Assembly: GCA_021927905.1 (NCBI GenBank)
Contig: BLLK01000075.1
Span: forward strand, 620,001 to 684,000
Reading direction: 5' to 3'
Source: Chaetoceros tenuissimus
Lineage: Eukaryota > Bacillariophyta > Thalassiosirophyceae > Chaetocerotales > Chaetocerotaceae
DNA: 64,000 nucleotides
The notes below the pieces were generated by a model that saw only the letters and a program-made list of their open reading frames with translations, ran no database searches and was not told the DNA's origin. The position numbers and the translations under genes are program-made. This document shows, one piece after another, positions 8,142-30,920 of the stretch. Within the stretch, counting starts at the first letter, position 1, and every line of letters begins with the position of its first letter.

Positions 8142-8879
8142 ATGTATTTAGGAGATAGATCGCTAGACTATGCAAGTACAAGTAGTGAGACCTTTCGCCG
8201 TCAGCTGAGCTTCTGGGGCTTCAAACGGATATCTACTTCAAGCAACAGAGAAGAGAATGGATCATATTATCATGAAAAGTTTCTACGGAGCAAAGATTAC
8301 CTTTGTCGACTGATTCCACGATGCAATGAAGCATCTGGTCCTCTTCTAGATAGTGAAAAGCCAGTCTTTGAACGTATGAAAGCGATGTCGCCTTCAGAGC
8401 AGCATCGACTTACGACACCTGAGTCAGATGATGAACTTTTCGATTTGCTATTCTTGTCTTCTTCGAATAAGGATACAAGATCGAGGAGTAGCAATCAGTC
8501 TTCGTCTGTTGTAGCTCTTGCAACCTCTGGATCATTTACAGATGTAAACCCAAACATCAACTCAAGCCTTGTTCCATTTAGTAGCAATAATTTGAACCAT
8601 GAAGTGTCGCTCTTTACAGCAAACAACATGGTAATAAGTAACGCTGACCCTCTCCCTATGCAAACTTCTGATGCTAGCAACACAAGCCAAAGAGAAACCG
8701 ATGACAACGGACAAACATATGACAATCTAGACCTTGAGCAACTCCTATCAGATGAAAATGAGTCGCAATGGAGGCATCTACAACCGTTCCCGATCGGTTT
8801 TCAACCACCATTATCTCAGGGAGAATCGGAAGAAATGGAACAGTTTATGGATTTCGTTAGAAGGAAAACAAGAAATTAA
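8142..8879 (+). CDS. Heat-shock-factor-like protein with only the C-terminal half of the DNA-binding domain
   Basis: Residues 17-60 read TFRRQLSFWGFKRI, then a loop, then YYHEKFLRSKDYLCRLIPR. This matches the recognition-helix half of the HSF DNA-binding domain (SFxRQLNxYGFxK...F.H..F.R....L..I.R). The usual N-terminal part, with the FPxKLxxxL helix and the W...G..F strand, is absent. The remaining 180 residues are serine/asparagine-rich and acidic, as in diatom HSF tails, with ESDDELFDLLF resembling a hydrophobic-acidic activation motif. HSF genes are strongly expanded in diatoms. The gene may be a 5'-truncated copy or may have an upstream exon that I could not find. DNA binding with half a domain is doubtful. 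Confidence 0.65.
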   Translation: MYLGDRSLDYASTSSETFRRQLSFWGFKRISTSSNREENGSYYHEKFLRSKDYLCRLIPRCNEASGPLLDSEKPVFERMKAMSPSEQHRLTTPESDDELFDLLFLSSSNKDTRSRSSNQSSSVVALATSGSFTDVNPNINSSLVPFSSNNLNHEVSLFTANNMVISNADPLPMQTSDASNTSQRETDDNGQTYDNLDLEQLLSDENESQWRHLQPFPIGFQPPLSQGESEEMEQFMDFVRRKTRN

Positions 8880-11037: not shown

Positions 11038-13929
11038 ATGAAGTCGAAATACATCTCTGTCCCAAAGGAAGAGTACGAAGTACTCCAGTCTCAGCTCAAG
11101 GAAAAAGAAAGGCTCCTATCGCAGCTCAAAGCCATCTTGAAAGAAGTAGTCACCGACAACGATGTTCTCTGTACCATCTGTTTAGAAAAACTACAGAACC
11201 CGTGTATCTTGCCGGACTGCCTTCATAGATTCTGTAAAGAGTGCCTTCATGATAGTATTCTCTTGTGTAGCACCAAGTGTCCAGCTTGTAGAAAAAGAAT
11301 TTCAAATCGGAGAGAAGGATTGCATGAAGACAAACCTTTTCAACGGGTGGTATGTAAATAGATACGTTTGGAAAACTAGATCAATATTTTCAGTCATCTA
11401 ACTTACATTTCTGCTTTATAGCTGCAGAAGTTATATATGATGAATGAAATCATTGATCCCGATCAAGAAAAGAGTGGCGGTGAAAAAGATGAAAAAGATT
11501 CTAATAAGAAAATCAAGATAGAGGAGGTGCAATCAGATCCAAAGATAAAGGCGAAGGTGAAGAAAGAAAAGAACATAATGAAAAAACAAGCCAAGGCTGA
11601 AAAGACAATTGGAAAATATGAATCACCTGCAAGAAATTACATTGGGGTGGCAAGAAGTAGAGACAAGTACAAAGCTACAATTACTTACTCTGGCAAAACT
11701 TTTATTATTGGAAACAAATACGAATTGGCTTCGGATGCAGCTGAAATCTTTGATCGAGCTGTCAAAATCCTCAAGATGGATCATAAAACCAATTTCTACA
11801 ATACTTTACATTGGAAGAAGGCGCGAGAAGAAGAACTTATCGACAATCTCAAAGAGGAAGTTGGGGAAGATAATCTTGTTGGAATTGATTTGTCACAAAT
11901 ATCAAAGTCTGTTGATCCAAATTTTCCTACTGACGATGAATTGAGAGTCAAATTTGGTTTGATAAATGAAAAGTCTAGCCTTTATAAAAGGTATGTTCAT
12001 CAAAAGAAGAGAGCAGAGAAAGCTATTGATCAAAAGATGAGAGCAGTGACATTGACCAAGAAACTTAGAATGAAGAATCAATCTCTTCCCGAGAAGAGAA
12101 AAAGTGATGGACTAAAGAAAGAAGTGGTAGTGAAGGTAGAAATGAGCTCGGATGCAACTACATCTTATCATTCAAAAGCCAAAAGTGGTTTCATAGGAGT
12201 CTATCAGAACTGTGGCTATCAGAAATATTTTAGTCAGATCAGCCACAACGGGAAACATCATCACTTGGGATCGTTTATTCTGGCAACTGATGCTGCACTT
12301 GTATTCGATAGAGCCAGAGTAGTCATTTCAGATGCAAAGGAAGGAAGAAACTCACTTCGTTTAAACTTCCAAACCCACGAAGAATATAAAGAAGCTAGAC
12401 AGAGTGAGCTCAGAGGCAAGAGTGTTCATCACGAGCAGAATCTTCCATCCAATGAAGATTTGAAAGTGATACTAGGAATTCATATCCCCAGCTCCATCAT
12501 AGTTGGTACAAAAGTATTGAAAGATTTTGGAGAACATGGGGTTTTTGAAGGAAGTGTGACATCTCTTCCTGACTCCAGGTCGAGATATTATCATGTCGCA
12601 TATACTGACGGTGATGGTGAGGATTTATTTTTATCGCAAATAGAGCCTTTGGTTACAGCGTATGAAGCGAAGGATATGGATAGAAGTATGCAAGAAACTT
12701 CTGTATTGCAATCTGATTTGAGATCCGATTTAAATGAGGTTTCCAACAGCAACCAAACGTCTAGTGGTTCTATCTCTGGAAGATCAAAACGTAGTAGTGC
12801 CAGTGGTATTGATGAAATTTCAACACCAACTTGTACAAATTCTGAGGAGGACATCACATTACCAGATTTGGTTGCTCCTTCTAGTGAAGATATGATGGTT
12901 TTTAACAAAGCTGTGGGTAGAACAAGTCTTAAATTGAGTGCAGATACGGGTGGGGTCGCTAATAACAGCGAATCGTCAAGGGATTCTGAGTCGGAGTGCA
13001 GTAGTGATAGTGATATGGATAGTGAAAGTTCAAGTGATAGTGGTAGTGAAAGTTCCAGTGATAACAATGATGCTATTGATGATTGTCCAGTAACGCCTGT
13101 GAAAGAGATAATACCAATTCCAGCATTGGTTACTCCTTCACGAGAAGAAATAGCTGTTTATAATGAGAAATGTAGCGACGCTGATATAAATTTCCCAGCA
13201 CCAGAGACCACTAAAATTGAAAAGGGTTCGGTCATCATGACATCTAGTGTAGAGGAAGCTGTTGACAATATGAGAAGTGAATTTGAAAGAGATCACGTAT
13301 CCAAATTAGATGAATGGGATATCAATATGCACATAACGAAAAGAGTTCCTGGTGATGATTTACCTTTGTACAAAGATATTTTCAGATCACTGAAATATAG
13401 AAAGCCCGAAAGATACATTAAGTTGAAGAGGAAGCTTTCAGTCAGCAACGATATAGATCGATGCACCAAGTCTTTGAAATCGGAACATTTATCTGAGATT
13501 TGCTTATATACAAGACCACAGAGCATTAAAAATGAGGAGAATGTAGATTTGCCAAAAATGGAAGACGTGAAAGATCCAATTGTAAAGACTCATCATGTTC
13601 GAGGTAGCCAAAAGGTTAAGGAAATCAATACATTGCCAACTCCAAACCTCATGAAACGAAATGAATGCTTCGCAGAAGGTTGCAACGTAATTACCCACTT
13701 AAGACCATGTACTGGATGCAACATTGCGAAATATTGTTCCGAGAGGTGTCAAGAGAAAGATTGGTACAGACACAAGGAGTGCTGTAGAAAGATTGGAAAT
13801 ACTTTGGAACCCACGAGTCAACCAGAAGATGTAAAAAGGCATTCTTGCTCTGAAGATAAAAAACTGAAACTGCAACAAACTAGACTCTTATATAAGTTCT
13901 TGGCATTTACAGCCTCTTTCCGAAAGTAG
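11038..13929 (+). CDS. RING - AP2 - AP2 - Tudor-like - MYND multidomain protein
   Basis: Two exons (11038-11349, 11422-13929) are joined by a 72-nt GT-AG intron in phase 0, giving about 939 residues. In order: a short coiled coil (10-40); a C3HC4 RING at about 45-86 (CTICLEKL...CLHRFCKECL...CPACRKRI), typical of ubiquitin E3 ligases; a lysine-rich linker; an AP2-like DNA-binding fold at about 176-226 (YIGVARSRDKYKA, then AAEIFDRA); a second AP2 at about 359-405 (FIGVYQNCGYQKYF, LGSF, AALVFDRA); a Tudor-like segment at about 465-515 (VGTKVLKDFGEHGVFEG, YHVAYTDGDGEDL); a serine/acidic stretch; and a C-terminal MYND zinc finger at about 853-893 (CFAEGC...CTGC...YCSERCQEKDWYRHK). A nuclear DNA- or chromatin-associated regulator with E3 capacity is inferred. 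The fusion of these domains is unusual. Confidence 0.85.
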
Positions 13930-14668
13930 TGCAATTAATAATTTAAATATACTTTAATACCTAGTTTTACTCAGACTCTGAACTTTTTTAGCTGCCATTG
14001 AAAACCCATTTCCTCCAGCTGTTTTATCTTTGCCTCTGTGAGACTGTTCCGTGGCTTCTTGTCAAGCTGTATTTGCTTATAGGCTTGTCTCATGTATGCA
14101 ACCCAGTTCCCAAGAGAAGGATCATCTTCATACCTACGGGGAACATTACAATGACCTTGCTTCTCCTTAAACTGCTGGAGTTTTGTCATTTGCACTTCAA
14201 ACGACAGATTTTTACTAAGCTGCCATTGAAAACCTATTTCCTCCAACTTGTCTATCCTTGCTTGGGTGAGATTATATCGTGGCGTCTTACCAAGACGTAT
14301 TTGCTTGTAGGAATATCTCATGTCTGAAACCCAGTTCCCAAGAGAAGGATCATCTTCATACTTCCATGGAACATTACAATGACCATGCTTCTCTTTAAAC
14401 TGCTGCAATTTTGTAATTCGTAGATCAAACGGCAGAAATTTACTACACTCCCATTGAAACCCCATTTTCTCCAACTTGTCTATCTTTGCTTGTGTGAGAT
14501 TATGTCGTGGGTTCTTCCCCAGCTGTATTTGCTTGTAGGCTTGTCTCACTTCTGAAACCCAGCTCCCAAGAGAAGGATCGTCTTTACACTTCGTTGGAAC
14601 ATTACAATGACCATGCTTCTCTTTAAATTGTTGCAATTTTGTGATTTGCAGATCGAACGACAGAATTT

Positions 14669-15288
14669 GGATATGCTTTAGTTAAGGGGGCCCAATTTTT
14701 CATACCAAAAATAAGTACGTGTTCATGGTACACTATGTATATACGCTGTGACTCATACTGGAAAAGTACGCATTCTACAGTGGGCCCCCTCAACTAAACT
14801 TCTCGTCATTTATTACTATATATATAGCGAAAAAAGTGGGCCCCCTCAACTAAACTTCTGACAATATAATTACTATATATATGGCGAAAAAAGTGGGCCC
14901 CCTCAACTAAACTTCTGGCAATATATGACACTATATATATAATTAGATCAATATACGAATCCCTTCCTTTCCCTAACCATGTTACTAGACATGATGTTTG
15001 TTTCGCCGAAATCAGGCCTTACCCTTTTAAGCGGAAATGGCCCCGGCGGTGGTTGTGCCTGCGGCGCACATGCTCGGCTTCGCCTGCGCGGTGACTCCGC
15101 TTCGCGTCGTCACCTAGGAAAGAAGAACAACGAGAATACATATCAAATCGATTGAATCGAATCGAATGAATCTAAAGTTTGAAAGTTACTAAGTACGTGC
15201 TTTGAAATAGTTGTGTAAGTATGTTTTGTGAATTTGTTGTGAATTTGTGAAATGGCGTAGACTGGGCCCCCTCAACTAAACCATAACC
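14669..15288. mobile_element. 620-bp non-autonomous DNA transposon with 25-bp terminal inverted repeats and 8-bp target duplication
   Basis: The element is flanked by the 8-bp direct repeat CAGAATTT (14661-14668 and 15289-15296). Its termini are inverted repeats of 25 bp: read inward, the left end starts GGATATGCTTTAG and the right end GGTTATGGTTTAG. They share 21 of 25 positions and both end GGGGGCCC. There is no open frame of transposase size, so it is MITE-like and depends on an enzyme in trans. An 8-bp duplication fits hAT and some other superfamilies, but the ends are not the usual hAT CAG/TAG. It interrupts an HA-repeat coding region cleanly, which dates the insertion after that gene formed. 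Confidence 0.88.
14780..14947. repeat. Three 56-57-bp tandem subterminal repeats inside the transposon
   Basis: Copies start at 14780, 14836 and 14893, each with GTGGGCCCCCTCAACTAAAC followed by TTCT and a TA-rich stretch. The core GGGCCCCCTCAACTAAAC is the same sequence found at the right terminus near 15264-15281, so the element carries internal copies of its own end. Such repeats may be transposase-binding sites; that is inference from other DNA transposons. Confidence 0.88.
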
Positions 15289-15716
15289 CAGAATTTTTCT
15301 AAGCTGCCATTGAAAACCCATTTTCTCCAACTTTTTTATGTTTATTTTGGTTAGACCTTGTCGCGGCTTCTTACCAAGCTGTATTTGCTTATAGGCACGT
15401 CTTATGTGCCCAACCCACTCCCCAAGCGAAGGATCGAAAATCGGTGGCAGCACTCTGGAATGATATAGGGGTCAGATAAGACTTCTAAGCAGATTGTACA
15501 TTCATAGTCTTGAAAGAAAGTTGGATCTTCTAGTTGTTGCTGTACTAGTTGTTGTACTTCAACAGTGTCTTCATTCCCCTCTGACACCTCACTTGAAGTG
15601 ATAGCTCCCCTCGATCTTCTCGTTGATCGGCGGAGTGTTCTCTCTTGATTCCCATGATGGTTCATGTTAGAGTATAAATATTTAATGGTAATGAAGTGGA
15701 ATAATGGAGCAGTCAA

Positions 15717-16075
15717 TAGTCCTCGTAGAAGAGTACGATTATGAATGTTTAGAATTTTGAACTATGACTAGGGAAAAGATTTTGTTCATCTGACGTCACA
15801 GTCTATGCCAGTATGTACTTCTATCGTATATGACGTCAAAAAGATGTTGTCAGTAGCTGTCAAATAGGCTATTTCAATCCTTTGGCCACTTTCGTACTGA
15901 CCTTAAGTACACGATGCACCATATGAGATTGTGTATTGTGTATCTAATCATCATCAAATCCCTCATCTTCATAATCATCACATATCATATCTATCTCTGT
16001 ACATTAGCATTGATCCGTTCAGCCAGGAAAGCGAGTTTCACTTAGGATTAGGGTGTCCAAGCTTGAGAATCAATC
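15717..16075. promoter_or_regulatory. Duplicated divergent promoter with two TGACGTCA sites
   Basis: This lies between the RING/HA pseudogene and the DoxX pseudogene. TGACGTCA occurs at 15791-15798 and 15831-15838. The stretch AAATAGGCTATT followed by CCTTTTGGCCACTTTCG-like sequence at about 15863-15895 recurs at 21395-21425 upstream of the intact DoxX gene, and the leader AAGCGAGTTTCACTTAGG is shared too. So the promoter was duplicated with the gene pair. Confidence 0.6.
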
Positions 16076-16378
16076 ATGAGATGTATCTGGACCCTCATTC
16101 TTCTTCTTACAGTTGAAGCTGCAGCGTTCACGTCACCCTTGTCACTAAGAACAACTTCTATCCATACATCAACTCAAAATATTGGAATGAAATCAAGAAA
16201 GAAGATATGGTCAGCTATCATGTTTCCAAAATCAAAGCCATTTGAAGAAACGACAAGATGGCATGCCTTTCAAAAGTGTCTGTACTAGATTACATGATCA
16301 ATCATCGCTATTCTTTGGAATCTACACACTCCTTTCCATATCTACAGTACAATCAATCAAAGTCATAGACTCGATCTC
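16076..16378 (+). pseudogene. 5' fragment of the DoxX-like gene, decayed copy
   Basis: It starts MRCIWTLILLLTVEAAAFTSPL, nearly identical to the start of the intact gene at 21660, and the DNA stays alignable to about 16378 (the ...ATAGACTC region). Relative to that gene there are small insertions and deletions, and the frame closes after about 70 residues. Beyond 16378 the sequence is unrelated, so the membrane core is missing. Confidence 0.85.
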
Positions 16379-16928
16379 CTTCCTTTTATTAGCTCCACGT
16401 TGTCTATTGAAGGAATTGAAAAAGAAAGCGGAGCACAAAGTATAAACATAGCACCATCCCCAGATACTGGGCCATGTTCGATAGGTGCAAATGAAGCAGA
16501 GAGTGAAGTACCTTCTAATGTACTGTTTACCATCGTCAAGTGTAGCACATTCTATAAATACAGAACCATCATCAGCACCTCCTTCTTCATTACTATCATC
16601 ATCTCCATCTGCATGAAATAGTGTTGCTACAAAGAATAGTTAATGGACGACAAACAAAGTATTGATATCTTTTGGGGGTTAAATGGTTTCTTGTCTAGGC
16701 AAGATGATCGAGGCAAGGTGCAAAAGATATCATAAAGGGGAAAGCATATGAACGTTGTAAATAAGCTAGCCGAATCATAAAGTTTATTTTTTCAAGTTTA
16801 CGTTACGTCAGTATATACCAAAGAACTTAGTTGCTGTCGTAGTCCGAATCGTATTCATTTGAATAAACATGAATTTATATTTTATCATAAATGTATATAT
16901 ATATATATATATAATCATGTATGTAGAA
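16379..16928. other. Non-coding spacer with TA microsatellite
   Basis: No gene is supported. A run of about eleven TA units lies at about 16891-16912, just downstream of the coiled-coil frame's stop codon. Confidence 0.5.
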
Positions 16929-18512
16929 TCATCGATGATGCGCATATGCTTCTATCATATGTTCAAGGCGTGCCAACGTTTTCGCATGGCTTTTCTTCTC
17001 TTTCTTGAGGTCTTTGATGAGTGTCTTATTCACGGTTTCGAAAAATGATGCTTGAGATGCATATTTGCTGCTTGCTACCGAATCGTTTGTTTTACTCCGT
17101 TTGCTTGGAATGATGGAGTTTGTATCATTATCACCTGAATCTTTGTCGACCCTTGATCTTTTGTGAGATGAGTATATTTGTCCCTTCAAACTTTCGTTCT
17201 CTTGCTTCAAACTTTGATTCTCGCTTTCCTTTGAAATAATTACTTCTTGTAGACTTAGGTTCATGTCCTCCTTCTCCTTGATCGTTTCATTCTGACTAAG
17301 GATTTCTTCTTGAAGCTTCTCATTTCGTTTCTCACTTGTTTGCAGTCTATCATGATGTGCAGATTCTATCTTTTCAATTTCTACACATTGCTCCTGTTTC
17401 TCACATCGGAGCCTCTTTATGATTTCGTTCTGATTTTCTATTTCATTCTTCAATGATTCTTTTGACTTCTTTATAATTTGGTTCAGATTTTCTATATCAT
17501 TCTTCAATGATTCTTCTGCTTGCATGATCTCTGCATTCCTTTTGTTCATTGCTTCTTTCACATCCTGCAAAATATCAAGTTTACTTTTCTTTTGATGTTT
17601 GATTAATTCCTGAAGTTGTTCATTTTCATCTTTTGCTTTCTGTAATGAAGATTTAAGCTCATTTACTTGACTGTTTTTTACTTTCTCTGCTTCTTCTAAC
17701 TTCTCAATCATTTGCTTCTGCTCATTTAGATGATTCTTTTGGGATACGCTTGTTTCTTTCAGAAGGTCAATATCGTCCTTACTGAGATCGCAATTTTGTT
17801 TCATTATCTCTACTTGTAGCTGTGAACATTTCTTTTCACCTTCTACGGATATTTGTTTGGTCCTGGTCTCTTTGTCCTCATAGACGACTTTCATTATGCT
17901 CCTCTCGCTTGCTAGTTATTCTCTTCCTACACATTGGACACTCCTTTCCACTTTTCTTGATAGAATCTTCAATACATTTCAAACAAAATCTGTGACAGCA
18001 CTCGGGCACTATATGTGGGTCTTTGAATGGATCGAGGCAGACTGAACACTCGAAATCCTTTTCTAACTTTTCCCTTTGTACTTCTCGCTGTGCCTCCTTT
18101 TTTCGAATATTTTCTTCATCTGTTTTTTGCCTCGACTCAAGATGTTGGATTCAATCATTCTTTTCCTGAAGCTTTGATTGTAAATCCTTGCCTGCAGCCA
18201 CCATACTTTCTATTTTGTTTTTGTCAGAAAGAGTACGAGCTAATTTTTCAAGGTTGTTACTTTTGGATTTTTCTTCCTCTAGCTGAGTCTCTAGATGCTT
18301 ACTTGCTTCAATCAAACATTCAAGATGTTCGATTGTATTATTCTTTTCCTCTAGCTGTTTCTTTAAATGCTCATTTGCCTTCGAAACATCTTCAAGCCTT
18401 TCTCCGTCTACTTTTTGCCTCGACTCAAAATGCTGGGTTGTACTATTCTTTTCCTCTAGCTGTTTCTTTAAATGCTCATTTGCCTTCGAAACATCTTCAA
18501 GCCTTTCTCCGT
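16929..18512 (-). pseudogene. Second RING / coiled-coil module, broken continuation of the upstream gene
   Basis: After the stop of the SANT/HSF/MYND gene at 18513 the coding resumes in the next frame with tandem coiled-coil units (ERLEDVSKANEHLKKQLEEK, twice). It meets a TGA at 18151-18153, then continues through ESRQKTDEEN to a complete RING at about 17918-18048 (CSVCLDPFKDP...CCHRFCLKC...CPMCRKRI). One more frame change near 17895 leads into a 321-residue coiled coil from ATG 17894 to 16929, rich in E/K/Q/N heptads with a basic patch (SHKRSRVDKD). The module repeats the RING-plus-coiled-coil order of the preceding gene, so it is either the tail of one very long protein or a duplicated neighbour. 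The 17894 frame could still be translated alone. Confidence 0.6.
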
Positions 18513-21107
18513 CTATTTTTGCCTCGACTCAAAATGCTGGATTGTACTATTCTTTTCTTCTAGCTGTGCTGAAGCAGCCATACTTTTACTCTTGTGTTCA
18601 TCAGAAAGAGTGCGAACCATAATTTCCAATGTGTTAATTCTAGTTTCCTTTTTCTGAAGCTGTGCCTCTAGAAACTTGATTCCCTTACCATCTTTAGCTT
18701 TCTCAATGTCAAATAAACACAAAAGTTCCCCAAATACTTCATCTCTTCTCAATGCTCGACGCGATGTTACCCGACATCTACACTTTGGGCATTCGTTTCG
18801 ATGCTTCAAAGCTCTCTCGATGCAACCTTTACAGAATCTATGACAACATTCTGGGACTATATGTGGATCATTGAGCTTCTCTAAGCAAATCGGGCAAGAA
18901 ATTTCATGTTGTACATCTGTGGTGATTGGATCTGTCCTTGGCATTTTGGCTTTGTGACCAACAGGGTGAAGGACATTGTTCTCCTTCGCTGGACAAGAAG
19001 GCGAACGCATTTCATTTTCATGATTATAGTCATCACAAGTAGGTTCATATCCATTTTGAGGGCCAGTTGTCTTTTGACGTGACGACTCCAGACTGTTGGT
19101 ATTGACGATCACATTCTCCGTATTTCTCCTTGTATCCTTTTCTTGGTTGATAATATTTGACTCATCATTCTTTTGTCTGCTTGGTTCATTTGTCTTTATC
19201 TTCTTAGAACCCTCACTTAGAGTAATTTCTTCATCTCTGCTTCTCTTTGTATCTGGTCTGTTTACAATCTCCCTAACAGGTAGAGAACTTCCTTCAATAC
19301 AATTCGTCGTGGTATTTCTGTCATGAGTATTATTTGATGCGTTCGTTCCCGTGTCTGTGCTAAGTGGCTTATCATTACAAGTCCCTTTCTTGCCACACGC
19401 TAACTTATGACAAACCCAATCAGATTGCTGACATGCTAAAGAACAGTAGTATGCATTATGACAGCCAGTACACTGCCTTAGATTGTCAGTCTCCTTGCAA
19501 AGTGAATTATTACAAACTCTCGACTGCAAAGCTTGTCCCCTCAATTCTTCTTCACTTAAAGATTTTCCCTTATTTGTATTGGTATCTCCTTTCAATGGCT
19601 TTGCGGTCTTCGTAGCAGCCCTAGTCTTCATTTTACTTTGGCTTGATTTGTCAGGAATTTCGTCCGTCGATACTCCCATACTTTTTGATGTATGTCCATT
19701 TTGAGGACCAGTTGTCTTTTGACGTGACAACTCCAGACTGCTGTTAATCACATTCGCCGTATTTCTCCTTGTATCCTTGTCTGGGGTGACAATATTTTGC
19801 TCATCGTTTGTCTTTATCTTCTTAGAACTCTCACTTGGAGTAATTTCTTCATCTCTGCTTCTCTTTGTATCTGGTCTGTTTACAAACTTCCTAGCCGCTA
19901 GAGAATCTCCCTCCCTACTATCCCTTTCTTGTGATTCTTTGTTCATTTCTTTGAAATATTCCTTAGCGTGAAAAGACGCTTGATTCTGGTTTTTCGTTCC
20001 TACATGGGAAGCTATCTCTACCCAACGTCCTCTATCATATTTTTCCAGACCTTCTAGAAAGAGTTGATGTTCTTTGGTAGTCCAATAGCAATCGACCCTC
20101 TTCAAATATTTTTGGCTATGACCATCAACTTGCCTTGCAGTCCTTGTTTTCACGTGATATGCGATATCTTGCCTTGATCTGCCATATTTTTCCAGAGCTT
20201 CTAAAAAGAGACGGTGTTCTATTGTTGTCCATGCTCCAGTATTCATAATCTTATCTCCTTTCAATGGTTTTTGGGTCTCTGAGGTTGCGCTAGCCTTCAC
20301 TTCACTAATGACTTTGGTATTTCTGTCATGAGTATTATTTGATGCGTTCGTGCCCGTGTCTGTGCTAAGTGACTTATCATTACAAGTCTCTTTCTTGCCA
20401 CACGCCCACTGATGAAAATGCCAATCAGATTGTTGACATGCTAAAGAACAATAGCATACATTATAACATCCAGAGCATTTCATTAAATTCGAAGTCTTCT
20501 TGCAAAGCTTTCTATTGCAAACGTTTTGTTTCAAATCTTGTCGCTTCAATTCCAATGTAGAACCCCTCCAAAAGTCCGAATGAAACCAAGCACCATTGCC
20601 TGGTATTTGATTGAATCCATATGAATAGAGCTCTGTTTCAAAATGACCAAAGCCATGAAAGGATCCACCGAAGTAAAGAAGTAACGCAACTCTCACAAAT
20701 TTCAATGTATCGTAAATGCAAAATGTTTGACCATCAGTCTGCCATCCTATGACATAGCCTAGAGACTTGTCTTCAAGCATTCTCCTTAGAGTAAATATAA
20801 ATGGTTCTTGTTTCTGAAATGAATCAAAATGACACCAAACCTCTTCAGCATTTCGCGACTTGACAAGAGCTGCGATCTTTTCCCAATCTTTTCCATATGC
20901 ATAGAGACCATCTAGAAAAGTACAGTGCTCACTGTAAGACCACTGCCCTTTACTTTCAGTTATATTAACAAGAGCTGATGCTCCCCTGATATTATTAGCA
21001 ATGTTCTCTGCACTTTGTTTCTTTTCTTTCGACCAAGATTTGTCAAAAGAAGTTGCACATCCGCTTCCAGACGTGCACGTCTCACTCTTCCGATCTGAAG
21101 CGTTCAT
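18513..21107 (-). CDS. SANT - HSF - MYND - Myb - Myb - MYND - RING - coiled-coil protein
   Basis: This is an uninterrupted frame of 864 residues. Visible in order: a SANT/Myb-like domain at 56-98 (WSYSEHCTFLDGLYAYGKDW); a complete but divergent HSF DNA-binding domain at 101-182 (FIFTLRRMLED, IGWQTDGQTFCIYD, FETELYSYGF, FHSDFWRG); MYND 1 at 197-236; a SHAQKYF-like Myb at 292-338 (WTTIEHRLFLEALEKYG...GHSQKYLKR) and a second at 340-388; a lysine/arginine linker; MYND 2 at 532-571; RING at 738-777 (CPICLEKLNDP...CCHRFCKGC...CPKCRCRV); and a coiled coil. MYND 2 and the linker at about 530-690 duplicate 197-480 internally (VNRPDTKRSRDEEIT occurs twice). The stop TAG at 18513 appears to come from one lost base compared with the next repeat copy. 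A nuclear regulator combining DNA binding and ubiquitin ligation is inferred. Confidence 0.85.
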   Translation of the reverse strand: MNASDRKSETCTSGSGCATSFDKSWSKEKKQSAENIANNIRGASALVNITESKGQWSYSEHCTFLDGLYAYGKDWEKIAALVKSRNAEEVWCHFDSFQKQEPFIFTLRRMLEDKSLGYVIGWQTDGQTFCIYDTLKFVRVALLLYFGGSFHGFGHFETELYSYGFNQIPGNGAWFHSDFWRGSTLELKRQDLKQNVCNRKLCKKTSNLMKCSGCYNVCYCSLACQQSDWHFHQWACGKKETCNDKSLSTDTGTNASNNTHDRNTKVISEVKASATSETQKPLKGDKIMNTGAWTTIEHRLFLEALEKYGRSRQDIAYHVKTRTARQVDGHSQKYLKRVDCYWTTKEHQLFLEGLEKYDRGRWVEIASHVGTKNQNQASFHAKEYFKEMNKESQERDSREGDSLAARKFVNRPDTKRSRDEEITPSESSKKIKTNDEQNIVTPDKDTRRNTANVINSSLELSRQKTTGPQNGHTSKSMGVSTDEIPDKSSQSKMKTRAATKTAKPLKGDTNTNKGKSLSEEELRGQALQSRVCNNSLCKETDNLRQCTGCHNAYYCSLACQQSDWVCHKLACGKKGTCNDKPLSTDTGTNASNNTHDRNTTTNCIEGSSLPVREIVNRPDTKRSRDEEITLSEGSKKIKTNEPSRQKNDESNIINQEKDTRRNTENVIVNTNSLESSRQKTTGPQNGYEPTCDDYNHENEMRSPSCPAKENNVLHPVGHKAKMPRTDPITTDVQHEISCPICLEKLNDPHIVPECCHRFCKGCIERALKHRNECPKCRCRVTSRRALRRDEVFGELLCLFDIEKAKDGKGIKFLEAQLQKKETRINTLEIMVRTLSDEHKSKSMAASAQLEEKNSTIQHFESRQK

Positions 21108-21659
21108 TTTCTTTTGACTGCCTGACTCGACTCTTCTTGATTATCTTGAAAACTCTCTTTTGCAAAGAAGCTCAAAGTATATATGTATAATTTTGTTTAG
21201 ATGATGACTGAAGTTAGATCTCAAGAAGCTCAAATTGCTCCAGTGAATATGTACTCTCATATGTTTTATGTTCTTTCGAGAAGAATGAGATGATACTCCG
21301 AGTTGTAAAACGCGAGTATCAAAATAGCTGAAATAGGCCTCTGTCATAAACTAAAAAAGATGATTTTGTCCTTCTACTGACGTCATTGGATATCAAATAG
21401 GCTATTATCCTTTTGGCCACTTTCGCCTTTCACTTCACCTCCGATTGATGACGTACCAAAGTACATACTCGTAGATTCTACATTCTACACATTCTATTAC
21501 ACATCAACTCTATTCTCGCATCTTCATCATCATCATACATATCATAACTAACTATCTCAGTACCTTGGCATTGATCCAATCAAAACTTTCATTCATATCA
21601 AAGCTTCTTTCAAAGCGAGTTTCACTTAGGATTAGGGTGTCCAAGCTTGAGAATCAATT
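21108..21659. promoter_or_regulatory. Divergent promoter of the SANT/HSF/MYND gene and DoxX-like gene
   Basis: This 552-bp spacer has TGACGTCA at 21378-21385 and shares the AAATAGGCTATT / CCTTTTGGCCACTTTCG block with 15860-15895. The conservation of this block after duplication suggests it is functional. Confidence 0.6.
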
Positions 21660-22508
21660 ATGAGATGTATTTGGACCCTCATTCTTCTTCTTACAGTTGA
21701 AACTGCAGCGTTCACGTCACCCCTTTCAATAAGAACACCTTCTATCCATGCATCAACTCGAAATAGAGGGAATCAAGAAAACAGATATGGTCAGCTATCA
21801 TGTTTCCAAAATCAAAGCCATTTGAAGAAACGACAAGATGGCATGCCTTTCAACTTCAACAGTCGGTTACAAATGTCACCATCTGGAATCGATGAATTAC
21901 CGATCATCTATCAATCATCGATATTCTTTGGGATCTATACACTCCTTTCCATATCTACTATACAATCTATTAAAATTATAGACTCAATATCCAAAGGAAT
22001 CGGATTGGAAACGTGGCGAAATGTATTTGTAGACAAATTGCTTCCTTTATTGTTGGGAATATTATATGCAACGGCTGGTATTGGACATTTTACAAATTCG
22101 GATGCATTTTGTAGTATATATCCACCAGTTGGTACTTGGGGTATATGGTATTTATTCGGTTCTGCAGAGTTTCATGTAGCATGGACGGGTGTCGTTGAAA
22201 TATTGGGAGGATCGGGACTTTTAGTAGGTGGTGTTCGATCTTTATTCAATATGGAAGATGATGATGATGGACTTGTTCTGAAATTGATCAAGCCGATCAG
22301 TGCAGTTATGCTATTCTTATTGACAGTATTGGTAACTCCTGCGAATATTTACATGTATACTCATGGAGCCGTGATGGGAGCAGATATGCCGCCATTGGAT
22401 ATTTCATTTCATTACATTCGCTTTGTGATTCAAGTCTTGCTTTTGAGTACGTTGTTTGTGCTTGCGAAAGATGGTTTGTTCTTTGCATGGGGCGATGAAT
22501 TAGATTAA
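21660..22508 (+). CDS. DoxX-like multi-pass membrane protein
   Basis: The 282 residues begin with a signal-peptide or first membrane segment (MRCIWTLILLLTVETAAF), then a polar 70-residue stretch that may be a targeting region. About five hydrophobic segments follow, at roughly 92-112, 125-150, 180-200, 215-235 and 250-272. GILYATAGIGHFTNSDAF and AGIGH-type glycine patterns resemble the DoxX/DoxD family, small membrane proteins linked with redox or quinone chemistry in bacteria. The eukaryotic role is unknown. The end is WGDELD. A decayed 5' copy (16076) and a decayed 3' copy (28701) lie in the same window. Confidence 0.7.
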   Translation: MRCIWTLILLLTVETAAFTSPLSIRTPSIHASTRNRGNQENRYGQLSCFQNQSHLKKRQDGMPFNFNSRLQMSPSGIDELPIIYQSSIFFGIYTLLSISTIQSIKIIDSISKGIGLETWRNVFVDKLLPLLLGILYATAGIGHFTNSDAFCSIYPPVGTWGIWYLFGSAEFHVAWTGVVEILGGSGLLVGGVRSLFNMEDDDDGLVLKLIKPISAVMLFLLTVLVTPANIYMYTHGAVMGADMPPLDISFHYIRFVIQVLLLSTLFVLAKDGLFFAWGDELD

Positions 22509-28700: not shown

Positions 28701-29081
28701 GAAGTTCTATAGAAATATTGGGAGGATCGAAACTTGTACTTAGTTGTGTTCGATCTATATTCAACATGCTGGAAGATGATGACGATTGACTTGACTTTTA
28801 GTAGGTGGTGTTCGATCTTTATTCAATATGGAAGATGATGACGATGGACTTGTTTTGAAATTGATCAAGCCGATCAGTGCAGTTATGCTATTCTTATTGA
28901 CGGTATTTGTGACTCATGCGAATATTTACATACTCATTGAGCTGTAATGGGAGCAGATATGCCGCTATTGGATGTTTCATTTCATTATACTCGCTTTGTT
29001 ATTCAAGTCTTGCTTTTGAGTACGTTGTTTGTGCTTGCGAAAGATGATTTGTTCTTTGCATGGGGCGATGAATTAGATTAG
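28701..29081 (+). pseudogene. 3' fragment of the DoxX-like gene with an internal partial duplication
   Basis: The last about 290 bases match the 3' end of the intact DoxX gene (SLFNMEDDDDGLVLKLIKPIS through WGDELD), ending at 29081. Immediately before, at about 28710-28790, is a second, more diverged copy of the same GGATCG...GTGTTCGATCT...GATGACGA segment, so the region has been partly duplicated in tandem. Small deletions relative to the intact gene break the frame. Confidence 0.85.
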
Positions 29082-29544: not shown

Positions 29545-30920
29545 ATGAGAGTCCAGACAGAAGAATGGCGGAGGTTCATTCCCAGAATGAGAATGTACAA
29601 AGGCAAGATGACACTCTTCTATAATGGAGAGATACTTTGCAAAATGGAAGATGGGATGGTAATCCTCTAATCTACAATGAAGAAGATCGACAGAAATGGG
29701 AAGTCATCGTATTTCTACCTGGGGTTAAAATCATTCCCAAATGGAATTTCTATTACTGTAGGAATGTCAAGGCAGTCATCATGAGTGATACAGTTGAAAG
29801 AATTGAAAAGGGTGCTTTCACTGGTTGCGGGAGTCTTGAATATATCAAATTTTCAAGAAATCTTCAACGCATCGAACGAGAAGCATTTCTTAGCTGTAGA
29901 TCTTTGACTTCAGTCGTCATTCCTCCATCCTGCAAAGAGATTGGCAAATCTGCATTTGAAGATTGTCACGAGCTAATCATCTTGAGTGTTCCTGAAGATA
30001 CGCAACTTGGAGAATATATGATTGTTAACACGGCATTGATAATTGCATCGCCATTTGAAACAAATGAGTATGGTCGTTATGAGAACAACGAGGAAGTCAA
30101 TAACTGGATTAAATACAGGCTCAATGAGTATCCACTCCATAAAGTCCGAACTCCTGATCTATATTTCTATAAAGACAGTGATTGGTATCAAAAAGATGAC
30201 TGCAGCTTAACGCCTATCGATTATTTCATTGCCAACTTCGGCACAGAGCATGTTTGGAATTTACCTCAATATGCGCAGTACTTAATTAAGAATAAAAAGC
30301 TGCATGAACTCAAGAAATTGAGCACAGAGAAAATTATAGAAAGTCAGCTTGCGTGGCAGCAAAAACAAATAACTTCTCTCCAGTCACAAATAATTGAGCA
30401 GCAAAAACAAATAACTACCCTCCAGTCTCAAATTACAGAACAAAACAATGAGATCACTTCATTCCAAAAAGACAGATACCATTTCATGTCTGTCAAATTA
30501 TTAGAGGACGAGATCAAGTGCTTAATTCGTTTCAATAAGTTCTCCACAGACATTGCTTCCAATGATCATGACATAAGAAAATTTCTCCCCGTGCTTAGTC
30601 AAAAATGTCATCACTACGTCTGCCAAGGATGCATGATAAAGACGCAGCAGGCTACTGCAGAAAATGCCCCTCGTGTTCCGAAATGGCTCAAGTGCATGTT
30701 CTGTCAACGAAAGACTGCATTTTGTCCGGAAAACCCGTTCTACCACACAAAGCTTATACAATTGCTAGAACGTGCTCGTAGATGTCACCCGACCGATGTG
30801 AAAGTTAAAGTGGAAATCGAAGATACTAGTTTGACTTCTAATATGGAAAGACCATCCAAGCGTCCAAAAAGACCAAATATTGTTGATGAAGAGGAGAGTA
30901 GAAGCAAGAATTTGAATTGA
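29545..30920 (+). CDS. Chimeric LRR - coiled-coil - zinc-cluster protein, with one 5' frameshift
   Basis: MRVQTEEWRRFIPRMRMYKG at 29545 is the plus-type family head. After FYNGEIL near 29635 the frame changes by one base and the second frame continues with WDGNPLIYNEEDRQKWEV, so the gene carries an insertion or a sequence error. BspA-type LRRs span about residues 60-165. Instead of the usual ITPSQYL...MMGE tail, the protein has a different middle domain, then a coiled coil with QQKQITSLQSQI repeats (about 270-300), then CHHYVCQGC and WLKCMFCQRKTAFCPENP, a cysteine/histidine cluster that looks like a degenerate RING, and a basic nuclear-signal-like tail (RPSKRPKRP). This is a domain swap within the LRR family. 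Confidence 0.75.

What the first reader, a model, noticed from the sequence alone, without database searches (positions are those of the whole stretch)
18513..21107. SANT-HSF-MYND-Myb-Myb-MYND-RING protein in one uninterrupted frame
Seven recognisable domains, including a full HSF DNA-binding domain between a SANT domain and a MYND finger, sit in one 864-residue frame. MYND plus linker has been duplicated inside the gene. This is an extreme case of regulatory domain shuffling and may define an undescribed class of DNA-binding E3 ligase.
Basis: partly seen in the sequence, partly recalled or inferred. Interest (0 to 1): 0.8.

Follow-up and report, generated by a model that had tools for sequence, protein, structure and literature searches.

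The report
Diatom Myb-HSF-MYND-RING mosaic protein gene
A probable diatom gene strings together seven regulator modules that end in a ubiquitin-ligase-type RING, but its heat-shock-factor module has lost the residues that read DNA and its reading frame breaks off inside a repeated stretch, so it looks like a shuffled and partly decayed regulator rather than a new class of DNA-binding ligase.

Summary
One 864-codon frame on the minus strand (21107-18513) carries, by profile search, three Myb repeats (SHAQKYF class; the 'SANT' is the first), an HSF-type domain (residues 103-183, 31.1 bits, cut-off 22), two MYND fingers and a C3HC4 RING. MYND plus linker is duplicated inside the gene; each linker copy carries a bipartite-NLS-like motif. 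The HSF module keeps core residues, but the recognition-helix tetrapeptide RQLN reads TELY, and residues 140-180 hold no Lys or Arg. Replacing that Arg abolished DNA binding in published tests, so heat-shock-element binding is unlikely. The frame ends at a shift inside a tandem repeat of coiled-coil-like sequence; related reading continues downstream in pieces, including a second RING 54% identical to the first. Either the 3' half is decaying or the assembly has errors there. Likeliest: a lineage-specific nuclear Myb-MYND-RING E3-type regulator made by shuffling families reported as abundant in Chaetoceros tenuissimus. Orthologues and transcripts could not be tested, as no eukaryote collection was available. 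New variant of a known kind.

The parts
18513..21107 (-). 864-codon open frame: Myb-HSF-MYND-Myb-Myb-MYND-RING, then coiled-coil-like sequence (by eye; no coiled-coil predictor was run)
20802..20954 (-).
   Evidence: Pfam Myb_DNA-bind_7 best stretch 52-102, 25.3 bits, below that model's cut-off of 31; Myb_DNA-binding has 3 stretches in the protein, above cut-off; aligned with Myb 2 over 47 codons
20559..20801 (-). HSF-type domain, residues 103-183; recognition helix region 155-165 has T158 and Y161 where HSF1 has Arg71 and Asn74
   Evidence: Pfam PF00447 31.1 bits; alignment to solved HSFs; residue check
20400..20519 (-). MYND finger 1, residues 197-236; all eight Cys/His present, first pair spaced C-x4-C
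19941..20234 (-). Myb repeats 2 and 3, residues about 292-389; Myb 2 keeps a SHAQKYF-like helix (GHSQKYL), Myb 3 reads FHAKEYF
19812..19865 (-). bipartite-NLS-like motif 1, residues 415-432
   Evidence: pattern scan with shuffle control
19395..19514 (-). MYND finger 2, residues 532-571; all eight Cys/His present
19194..19247 (-). bipartite-NLS-like motif 2, residues 621-638 (copy of motif 1)
18780..18896 (-). RING 1 (C3HC4), residues 738-776, followed by Arg777 at the linchpin position and basic R783-R784
18320..18567 (-). Two tandem copies of a unit of about 105 nt (94% identical over 144 nt); the copy nearer the 5' end of the gene is one base shorter, and the 864-codon frame ends in it
18154..18510 (-). 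Continuation in another frame: 119 codons, coiled-coil-like, with stretches related to residues 811-864
17881..18150 (-). After an in-frame TGA: 90 codons with RING 2, 54% identical to RING 1 over 54 residues, all zinc ligands present
16929..17894 (-). After a further frame change: 321-aa coiled-coil-like ORF (by eye; best Pfam E 0.035) with a KRSR...SKRSK-like stretch near its end

Best explanation
A lineage-specific diatom gene, most likely of a Chaetoceros, assembled by shuffling and internal duplication of modules from locally abundant families. Its product would be a nuclear E3-ubiquitin-ligase-type regulator. NLS-like linkers would bring it to the nucleus, Myb repeat 2 (and possibly 3) would give DNA or chromatin contact, the two MYND fingers would recruit partner proteins, and the RING with its coiled-coil-like tail would dimerise and recruit an E2. 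The HSF module is a relic that keeps core residues but no longer reads heat shock elements; it may serve as a spacer or protein contact. The C-terminal part (second RING and more coiled-coil-like sequence) is cut off in this sequence by a frame break in a tandem repeat. Shown: modules, order, duplication, loss of the HSF base-reading residues, and the broken downstream related frame. Inferred: source organism, nuclear location, E3 activity, DNA contact by Myb 2, partner recruitment, coiled coil and expression.
For: All modules lie in one frame with curated profile support. Both MYND fingers and both RINGs keep every zinc ligand. RING 1 keeps Ile740, Pro774 and Arg777 at the E2-facing and linchpin positions; among solved chains its best matches are RING1B/RING2 (chimera with BMI1 1.2e-20; plain RING1B from 4.8e-14), with an RNF4 chain interleaved (1.2e-13), and the RING1B similarity runs past the RING. 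MYND copies give a dN/dS point estimate of 0.48. Two bipartite-NLS-like motifs are present; 3 of 5000 shuffles hold two or more, though the two are copies of each other. The HSF helix reads HFETELYSYGF where the solved chains shown read SF[VI]RQLN, and the Arg of RQLN is needed for DNA binding (PMC12251660, PMC8379338, passages). GC of window and gene (38.4%, 39.8%) is close to that printed for C. tenuissimus (38.9% overall, 40.3% coding), where MYND, HSF, LRR5, ankyrin and RING genes are reported as abundant (PMC8613185, passages).
Against: The MYND dN/dS bootstrap interval is 0.24-1.06 and the linker gives 1.03 (0.38-4.08), so selection on the protein is not demonstrated; between Myb repeats dS is saturated. 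Three breaks from the stop onward suggest decay. No transcript, orthologue or structure supports the fusion: the single-sequence AlphaFold model of residues 48-188 is uninformative (mean pLDDT 39.6). Myb 1 and Myb 3 depart from SHAQKYF in the third helix. No coiled-coil predictor was run.
Confidence: 0.5

Rival explanations
1. Decaying gene: the locus is a pseudogene in progress, its 3' half already broken and the 864-codon 5' part still open by recency only.
For: A frame shift, an in-frame TGA and a second frame change lie within about 630 bases from the stop at 18513; linker copies diverge at dN/dS about 1; the HSF recognition helix and two of three Myb third helices are degenerate.
Against: 864 codons without a stop; both MYND and both RING ligand sets intact; MYND point estimate of dN/dS below 1. 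The first break lies in near-identical repeats, where assembly errors are likely.
Confidence: 0.25
2. The protein is longer than 864 residues: the stop at 18513 and the two later breaks are consensus errors in a long-read/short-read assembly, and the gene encodes a double-RING protein with a long coiled-coil-like tail, about 1,400 residues. This is compatible with the best explanation and differs in extent.
For: The frame ends in the first of two tandem copies (94% over 144 nt) that differ by one base in length, a place that short reads polish poorly (the polishing point is inference). The C. tenuissimus assembly used MinION plus MiSeq reads (PMC8613185, passages). Downstream pieces are related to the C-terminal part and keep an intact RING.
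Against: By eye the TGA is a substitution rather than an indel relative to sister repeats, and three independent errors in so short a stretch would be many. That the window is from this assembly is not established.
Confidence: 0.25
3. One reading: a DNA-binding E3 ligase that reads heat shock elements through its HSF domain and defines a new class.
For: Real HSF homology above the Pfam cut-off (31.1 vs 22 bits).
Against: RQLN reads TELY; no Lys/Arg in residues 140-180; 13 residues separate the end of the HSF match from the first MYND Cys, leaving no adjacent HR-A/B. Only one member seen.
Confidence: 0.05
4. Not one gene: in-frame introns or separate transcripts split the modules.
For: Three sites fit the donor pattern used, two of which pair with possible in-frame acceptors.
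Against: The possible in-frame introns start at residue 8 (78, 111, 174 or 216 nt) or residue 425 (54 nt). The two shorter ones at residue 8 end before Myb 1, the two longer ones would clip Myb 1, and none removes another module. Only one donor pattern and lengths of 45-250 nt divisible by three were scanned, so other splicing is not excluded.
Confidence: 0.08

Closest known systems
HSF-type DNA-binding domain (PF00447; solved HSF1/2/4, yeast and fly HSF, and 5d5w, 'putative transcription factor', recalled as Chaetomium Skn7)
   Same: Profile match over positions 1-90 of 100; Phe, Leu and the YGF turn retained
   Different: Recognition-helix RQLN replaced by TELY, no adjacent HR-A/B region, embedded between Myb and MYND
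SHAQKYF-class Myb-related transcription factors (TIGR01557)
   Same: Three stretches match the class profile; Myb 2 keeps GHSQKYL
   Different: Repeats interrupted by HSF and MYND modules; Myb 1 and 3 depart in helix 3; fused to RING
RING1B/RING2 (PRC1) and BRCA1 histone H2A ubiquitin ligases
   Same: C3HC4 RING with Arg at the linchpin position, R783/R784 aligned with RING1B K97/R98 and K768 with R81
   Different: No RAWUL domain among the Pfam matches shown (the RAWUL of RING1 proteins is recalled); other modules unrelated; a second RING follows only in a broken frame
MYND-fusion proteins abundant in diatoms (Fragilariopsis cylindrus, Chaetoceros tenuissimus)
   Same: MYND attached to diverse partner domains (PMC8991070, passage); 3 of 20 other ORFs of this window scanned with Pfam also carry MYND
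   Different: The combination Myb, HSF, MYND and RING was not seen in the listings of 10 paper searches or in the passages read
DEAF1-type MYND finger
   Same: Zinc-ligand pattern; a DEAF1 chain among solved matches (2.1e-5)
   Different: First Cys pair spaced C-x4-C; no SAND domain in the Pfam table

Membership tests
[quoted passage not shown]
   PF00447 31.1 bits vs cut-off 22, residues 103-183; 2.7e-7 to 5d5w
Heat shock factor | RQLN recognition-helix tetrapeptide with invariant Arg | tested here: not met
   TELY at 158-161; no Lys/Arg in 140-180; requirement from PMC12251660 and PMC8379338 (passages)
Heat shock factor | Oligomerisation region adjacent to the DNA-binding domain (HR-A/B) | tested here: not met
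   HSF match ends at 183 and the first MYND Cys is at 197; a coiled-coil-like stretch exists only far downstream (residues about 800-864, by eye). PMC12251660 passage names an adjacent oligomerisation domain; the name HR-A/B is recalled
SHAQKYF Myb-related | Class profile match | tested here: met
   TIGR01557 58.6 bits vs 29.3, 3 stretches
SHAQKYF Myb-related | SHAQKYF-like third helix | tested here: inconclusive
   Myb 2 GHSQKYL close; Myb 3 FHAKEYF partial; Myb 1 CHFDSFQ no
MYND finger | Profile and eight zinc ligands | tested here: met
   2 stretches, 39.7 bits vs 22.7; both copies complete
RING E3 ligase | C3HC4 ligands plus E2-facing residues and linchpin Arg | tested here: met
   41.6 bits vs 27; I740, P774, R777; linchpin Arg91 of RING1B from PMC6465349 (passages), roles of the Ile and Pro recalled
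RING E3 ligase | Ubiquitin transfer | not testable with these tools
   needs an in vitro assay
RING1/PRC1 H2A ubiquitin ligase | RING1B-like RING with basic post-RING residues | tested here: met
   best solved match, similarity through SRRALRRDEVFGELL vs SKRSLRPDPNFDALI; R81 and R91 read in PMC6465349, K97/R98 counted from R91 and their role recalled
RING1/PRC1 H2A ubiquitin ligase | C-terminal RAWUL domain | tested here: not met
   no RAWUL among the Pfam rows shown for the frame and three downstream pieces at E up to 10; 10 of 35 weak rows of one piece were not shown

The most novel reading that the evidence does not exclude
A sequence-targeted histone ubiquitin ligase in a single polypeptide: Myb repeats choose the locus, MYND fingers bring partners, and a RING1B-like RING (duplicated further downstream) with an arginine-anchor-like basic patch marks the adjacent nucleosome. 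It would do in one protein what Polycomb-type complexes do with several subunits, with the HSF fold reused for a non-DNA role.
Probability: 0.08. Interest if true: 0.75.

Novelty: new variant of a known kind. Interest (0 to 1): 0.38.

Why it matters
If transcribed whole, it would show how far transcription-factor and ubiquitin-ligase modules recombine in diatoms and would give a natural case of an HSF-type domain kept without its DNA-reading residues. It also warns that domain counts of 'HSF transcription factors' in diatoms may include members unable to bind heat shock elements. If the frame break is an assembly error, it shows how tandem coiled-coil-like repeats truncate gene models.

Tried and rejected
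Relatives: the whole protein and two sub-segments, residues 99-188 and 522-577, in viral contigs; the whole protein in genome contigs and in phages by tblastn. Searches had 2, 1 and 10 pattern matches, none confirmed; searches had none. These collections hold prokaryotes, viruses and phages, so absence says nothing about diatoms. Own genome: none is held.

Structure: the single-sequence AlphaFold of residues 48-188 was too poor to search with (mean pLDDT 39.6), so no fold search was run; the second structure job was not used.

Splicing across the first break was rejected because the two tandem copies align closely and differ there by one base in length. The functional-HSF view was rejected on the recognition helix. 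The K/R-free run in residues 140-180 is not itself improbable (201 of 2000 whole-protein shuffles hold such a run somewhere); it matters only because it spans the recognition helix.

Papers: 10 searches; none of the listings showed a Myb-HSF-MYND-RING protein. Passages only were read of eight papers: PMC4222949, PMC8613185, PMC4827209, PMC8991070, PMC8379338, PMC12251660, PMC6465349, PMC10959955. Most subscription papers are not in that library.

Full report
Observation. The minus-strand frame from ATG 21107 to the stop at 18515-18513 has 864 codons. The other five frames of the same stretch hold 36-87 stops each and no run over 83 codons, so the frame is not chance. Pfam supports three Myb stretches, HSF_DNA-bind (103-183, 31.1 bits against 22), two MYND fingers and a C3HC4 RING, all above curated cut-offs.

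Internal duplication. MYND plus the following linker is duplicated: 238 nt at 83% identity, linker blocks of 118, 62 and 60 nt at 87-88%, and a 72-nt block at 72% (blastn). By the coordinates of these blocks, the first copy has the Myb 2-Myb 3 pair between MYND-plus-linker and the second linker part; in the second copy it is absent. A script of the Nei-Gojobori type gives, over 79 codons of MYND, dN 0.165, dS 0.346, ratio 0.48 (bootstrap 0.24-1.06), and over 74 codons of linker 1.03 (0.38-4.08). Between Myb repeats dS is saturated. Each linker copy carries one bipartite-NLS-like motif (residues 415-432, 621-638). Shuffling the protein gives two or more in 3 of 5000 trials, but the copies are not independent. 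Of 32 ATG-started frames of 150 or more residues in the window, one other matches the same pattern.

HSF module. Pfam and solved-chain alignments are clear from helix 1 to the YGF turn. At the recognition helix the five solved alignments shown (of 20 matches listed) read SFVRQLN or SFIRQLN and this protein reads HFETELY: Thr158 stands at the Arg71 position of HSF1 and Tyr161 at Asn74. Residues 140-180 hold no Lys or Arg at all, so no shifted alignment supplies the arginine. PMC8379338 (passages) attributes sequence-specific contact mainly to that invariant arginine, with the asparagine auxiliary. PMC12251660 (passages) reports RQLN in all species it compared and loss of binding on Arg to Ala in two maize HSFs. 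The one other HSF match among the 20 further ORFs scanned here (8142-8876) keeps RRQLS. The HSF match ends at 183 and the first MYND Cys is at 197, so there is no adjacent oligomerisation region. The module is HSF-derived but very unlikely to read heat shock elements; whether it still folds was not shown (model too poor).

RING. RING 1 keeps all ligands, Ile740, Pro774 and Arg777 at the linchpin position. Among solved chains its best matches are RING1B/RING2 (a RING1B-BMI1 chimera 1.2e-20; plain RING1B from 4.8e-14), with an RNF4 chain interleaved (1.2e-13), then RAD18, PCGF proteins and BRCA1. Similarity to RING1B continues past the RING, and R783/R784 align with K97/R98 of RING1B, counted from Arg91. 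PMC6465349 (passages) names Arg91 as linchpin and Arg81 as a driver of nucleosome binding; K768 aligns with Arg81. PMC10959955 (passages) says the catalytic RINGs of RING1B, BRCA1 and Bre1 use conserved arginines as anchor on the acidic patch. The role of K97/R98 in particular is recalled. This is a lead for nucleosome targeting, not a test.

End of the frame. The last codons lie in a tandem repeat whose two copies are 94% identical over 144 nt but differ by one base in length, and the 864-codon frame ends in the shorter one. Beyond it, in other frames, come 119 codons of coiled-coil-like sequence partly related to residues 811-864, a TGA, 90 codons with RING 2 (54% identical to RING 1 over 54 residues; Pfam zf-C3HC4_2 37.3 bits), a frame change, and a 321-aa ORF at 17894-16929. 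'Coiled-coil-like' is by eye; no predictor was run. So 864 residues is probably not the original extent: either the 3' part has decayed or the assembly has errors. The Chaetoceros tenuissimus assembly was a MiSeq-MinION hybrid (PMC8613185, passages), where near-identical tandem copies are hard to polish (inference). That the window is from it is inferred, not shown.

Setting. Window GC is 38.4% and the frame's 39.8%, against 38.9% and 40.3% (coding) printed for C. tenuissimus. That paper lists LRR5, MYND, HSF and ankyrin genes as more abundant than in three other diatoms, and LRR5 and RING among eight domains notably higher than in other organisms. Of 20 other ORFs of the window scanned with Pfam (the rest of the 36 listed, besides this frame and the 321-aa ORF, were not scanned), MYND occurs in 3, LRR_5 in 3, HSF in 1 and ankyrin in 1. 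PMC4827209 (passages) reports the HSF expansion in diatoms and stramenopile combinations bHLH-PAS and bZIP-LOV; its main text has no occurrence of MYND or RING. MYND joined to varied partner domains is described for Fragilariopsis cylindrus in a review (PMC8991070, passage). The architecture is thus an extreme product of a known process.

Verdict. Observation confirmed, interpretation partly supported. Best reading: a shuffled Myb-MYND-RING nuclear E3-type regulator with a relic HSF module, truncated or mis-assembled at its 3' end. Expression, orthologues and activity are untested.

Noticed in passing
15949-16379, 21502-21992 (5' part of ORF 21660-22508), 22197-22507 and 28712-29080: The gene at 21660-22508 (no Pfam match at 0.001; membrane-protein-like by eye) has its 5' part repeated at 15949-16379 (77% over 495 nt) and its 3' part repeated at 28712-29080 (best stretch 93%), on either side of the intact copy, as if a second copy had been split by a block carrying this gene and its neighbours.
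   Followed up: partly
11437-13929 +: 830-aa ORF with a PTM/DIR17-type Tudor domain and a C-terminal MYND whose first Cys pair also looks spaced C-x4-C (by eye), like the MYND fingers of this gene.
   Followed up: partly
8142-8876 +: HSF fragment matching only profile positions 46-99, with RRQLS retained; the upstream half is not in this ORF.
   Followed up: partly
29637-30920 +: LRR_5 ORF with a RING-like Cys-rich stretch (by eye) near its C terminus and a basic tail, another possible shuffled regulator; no RING family matched at 0.001.
   Followed up: no
13980-15436: Helicase-associated (HA) repeats of 228 nt in tandem, with a partial further copy at 15289-15435.
   Followed up: no
14779-14941: Three copies of a 56-57 nt unit beginning AGTGGGCCCCCTCAACTAAACTTCT, outside the ORFs of 150 aa or more listed.
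   Followed up: no
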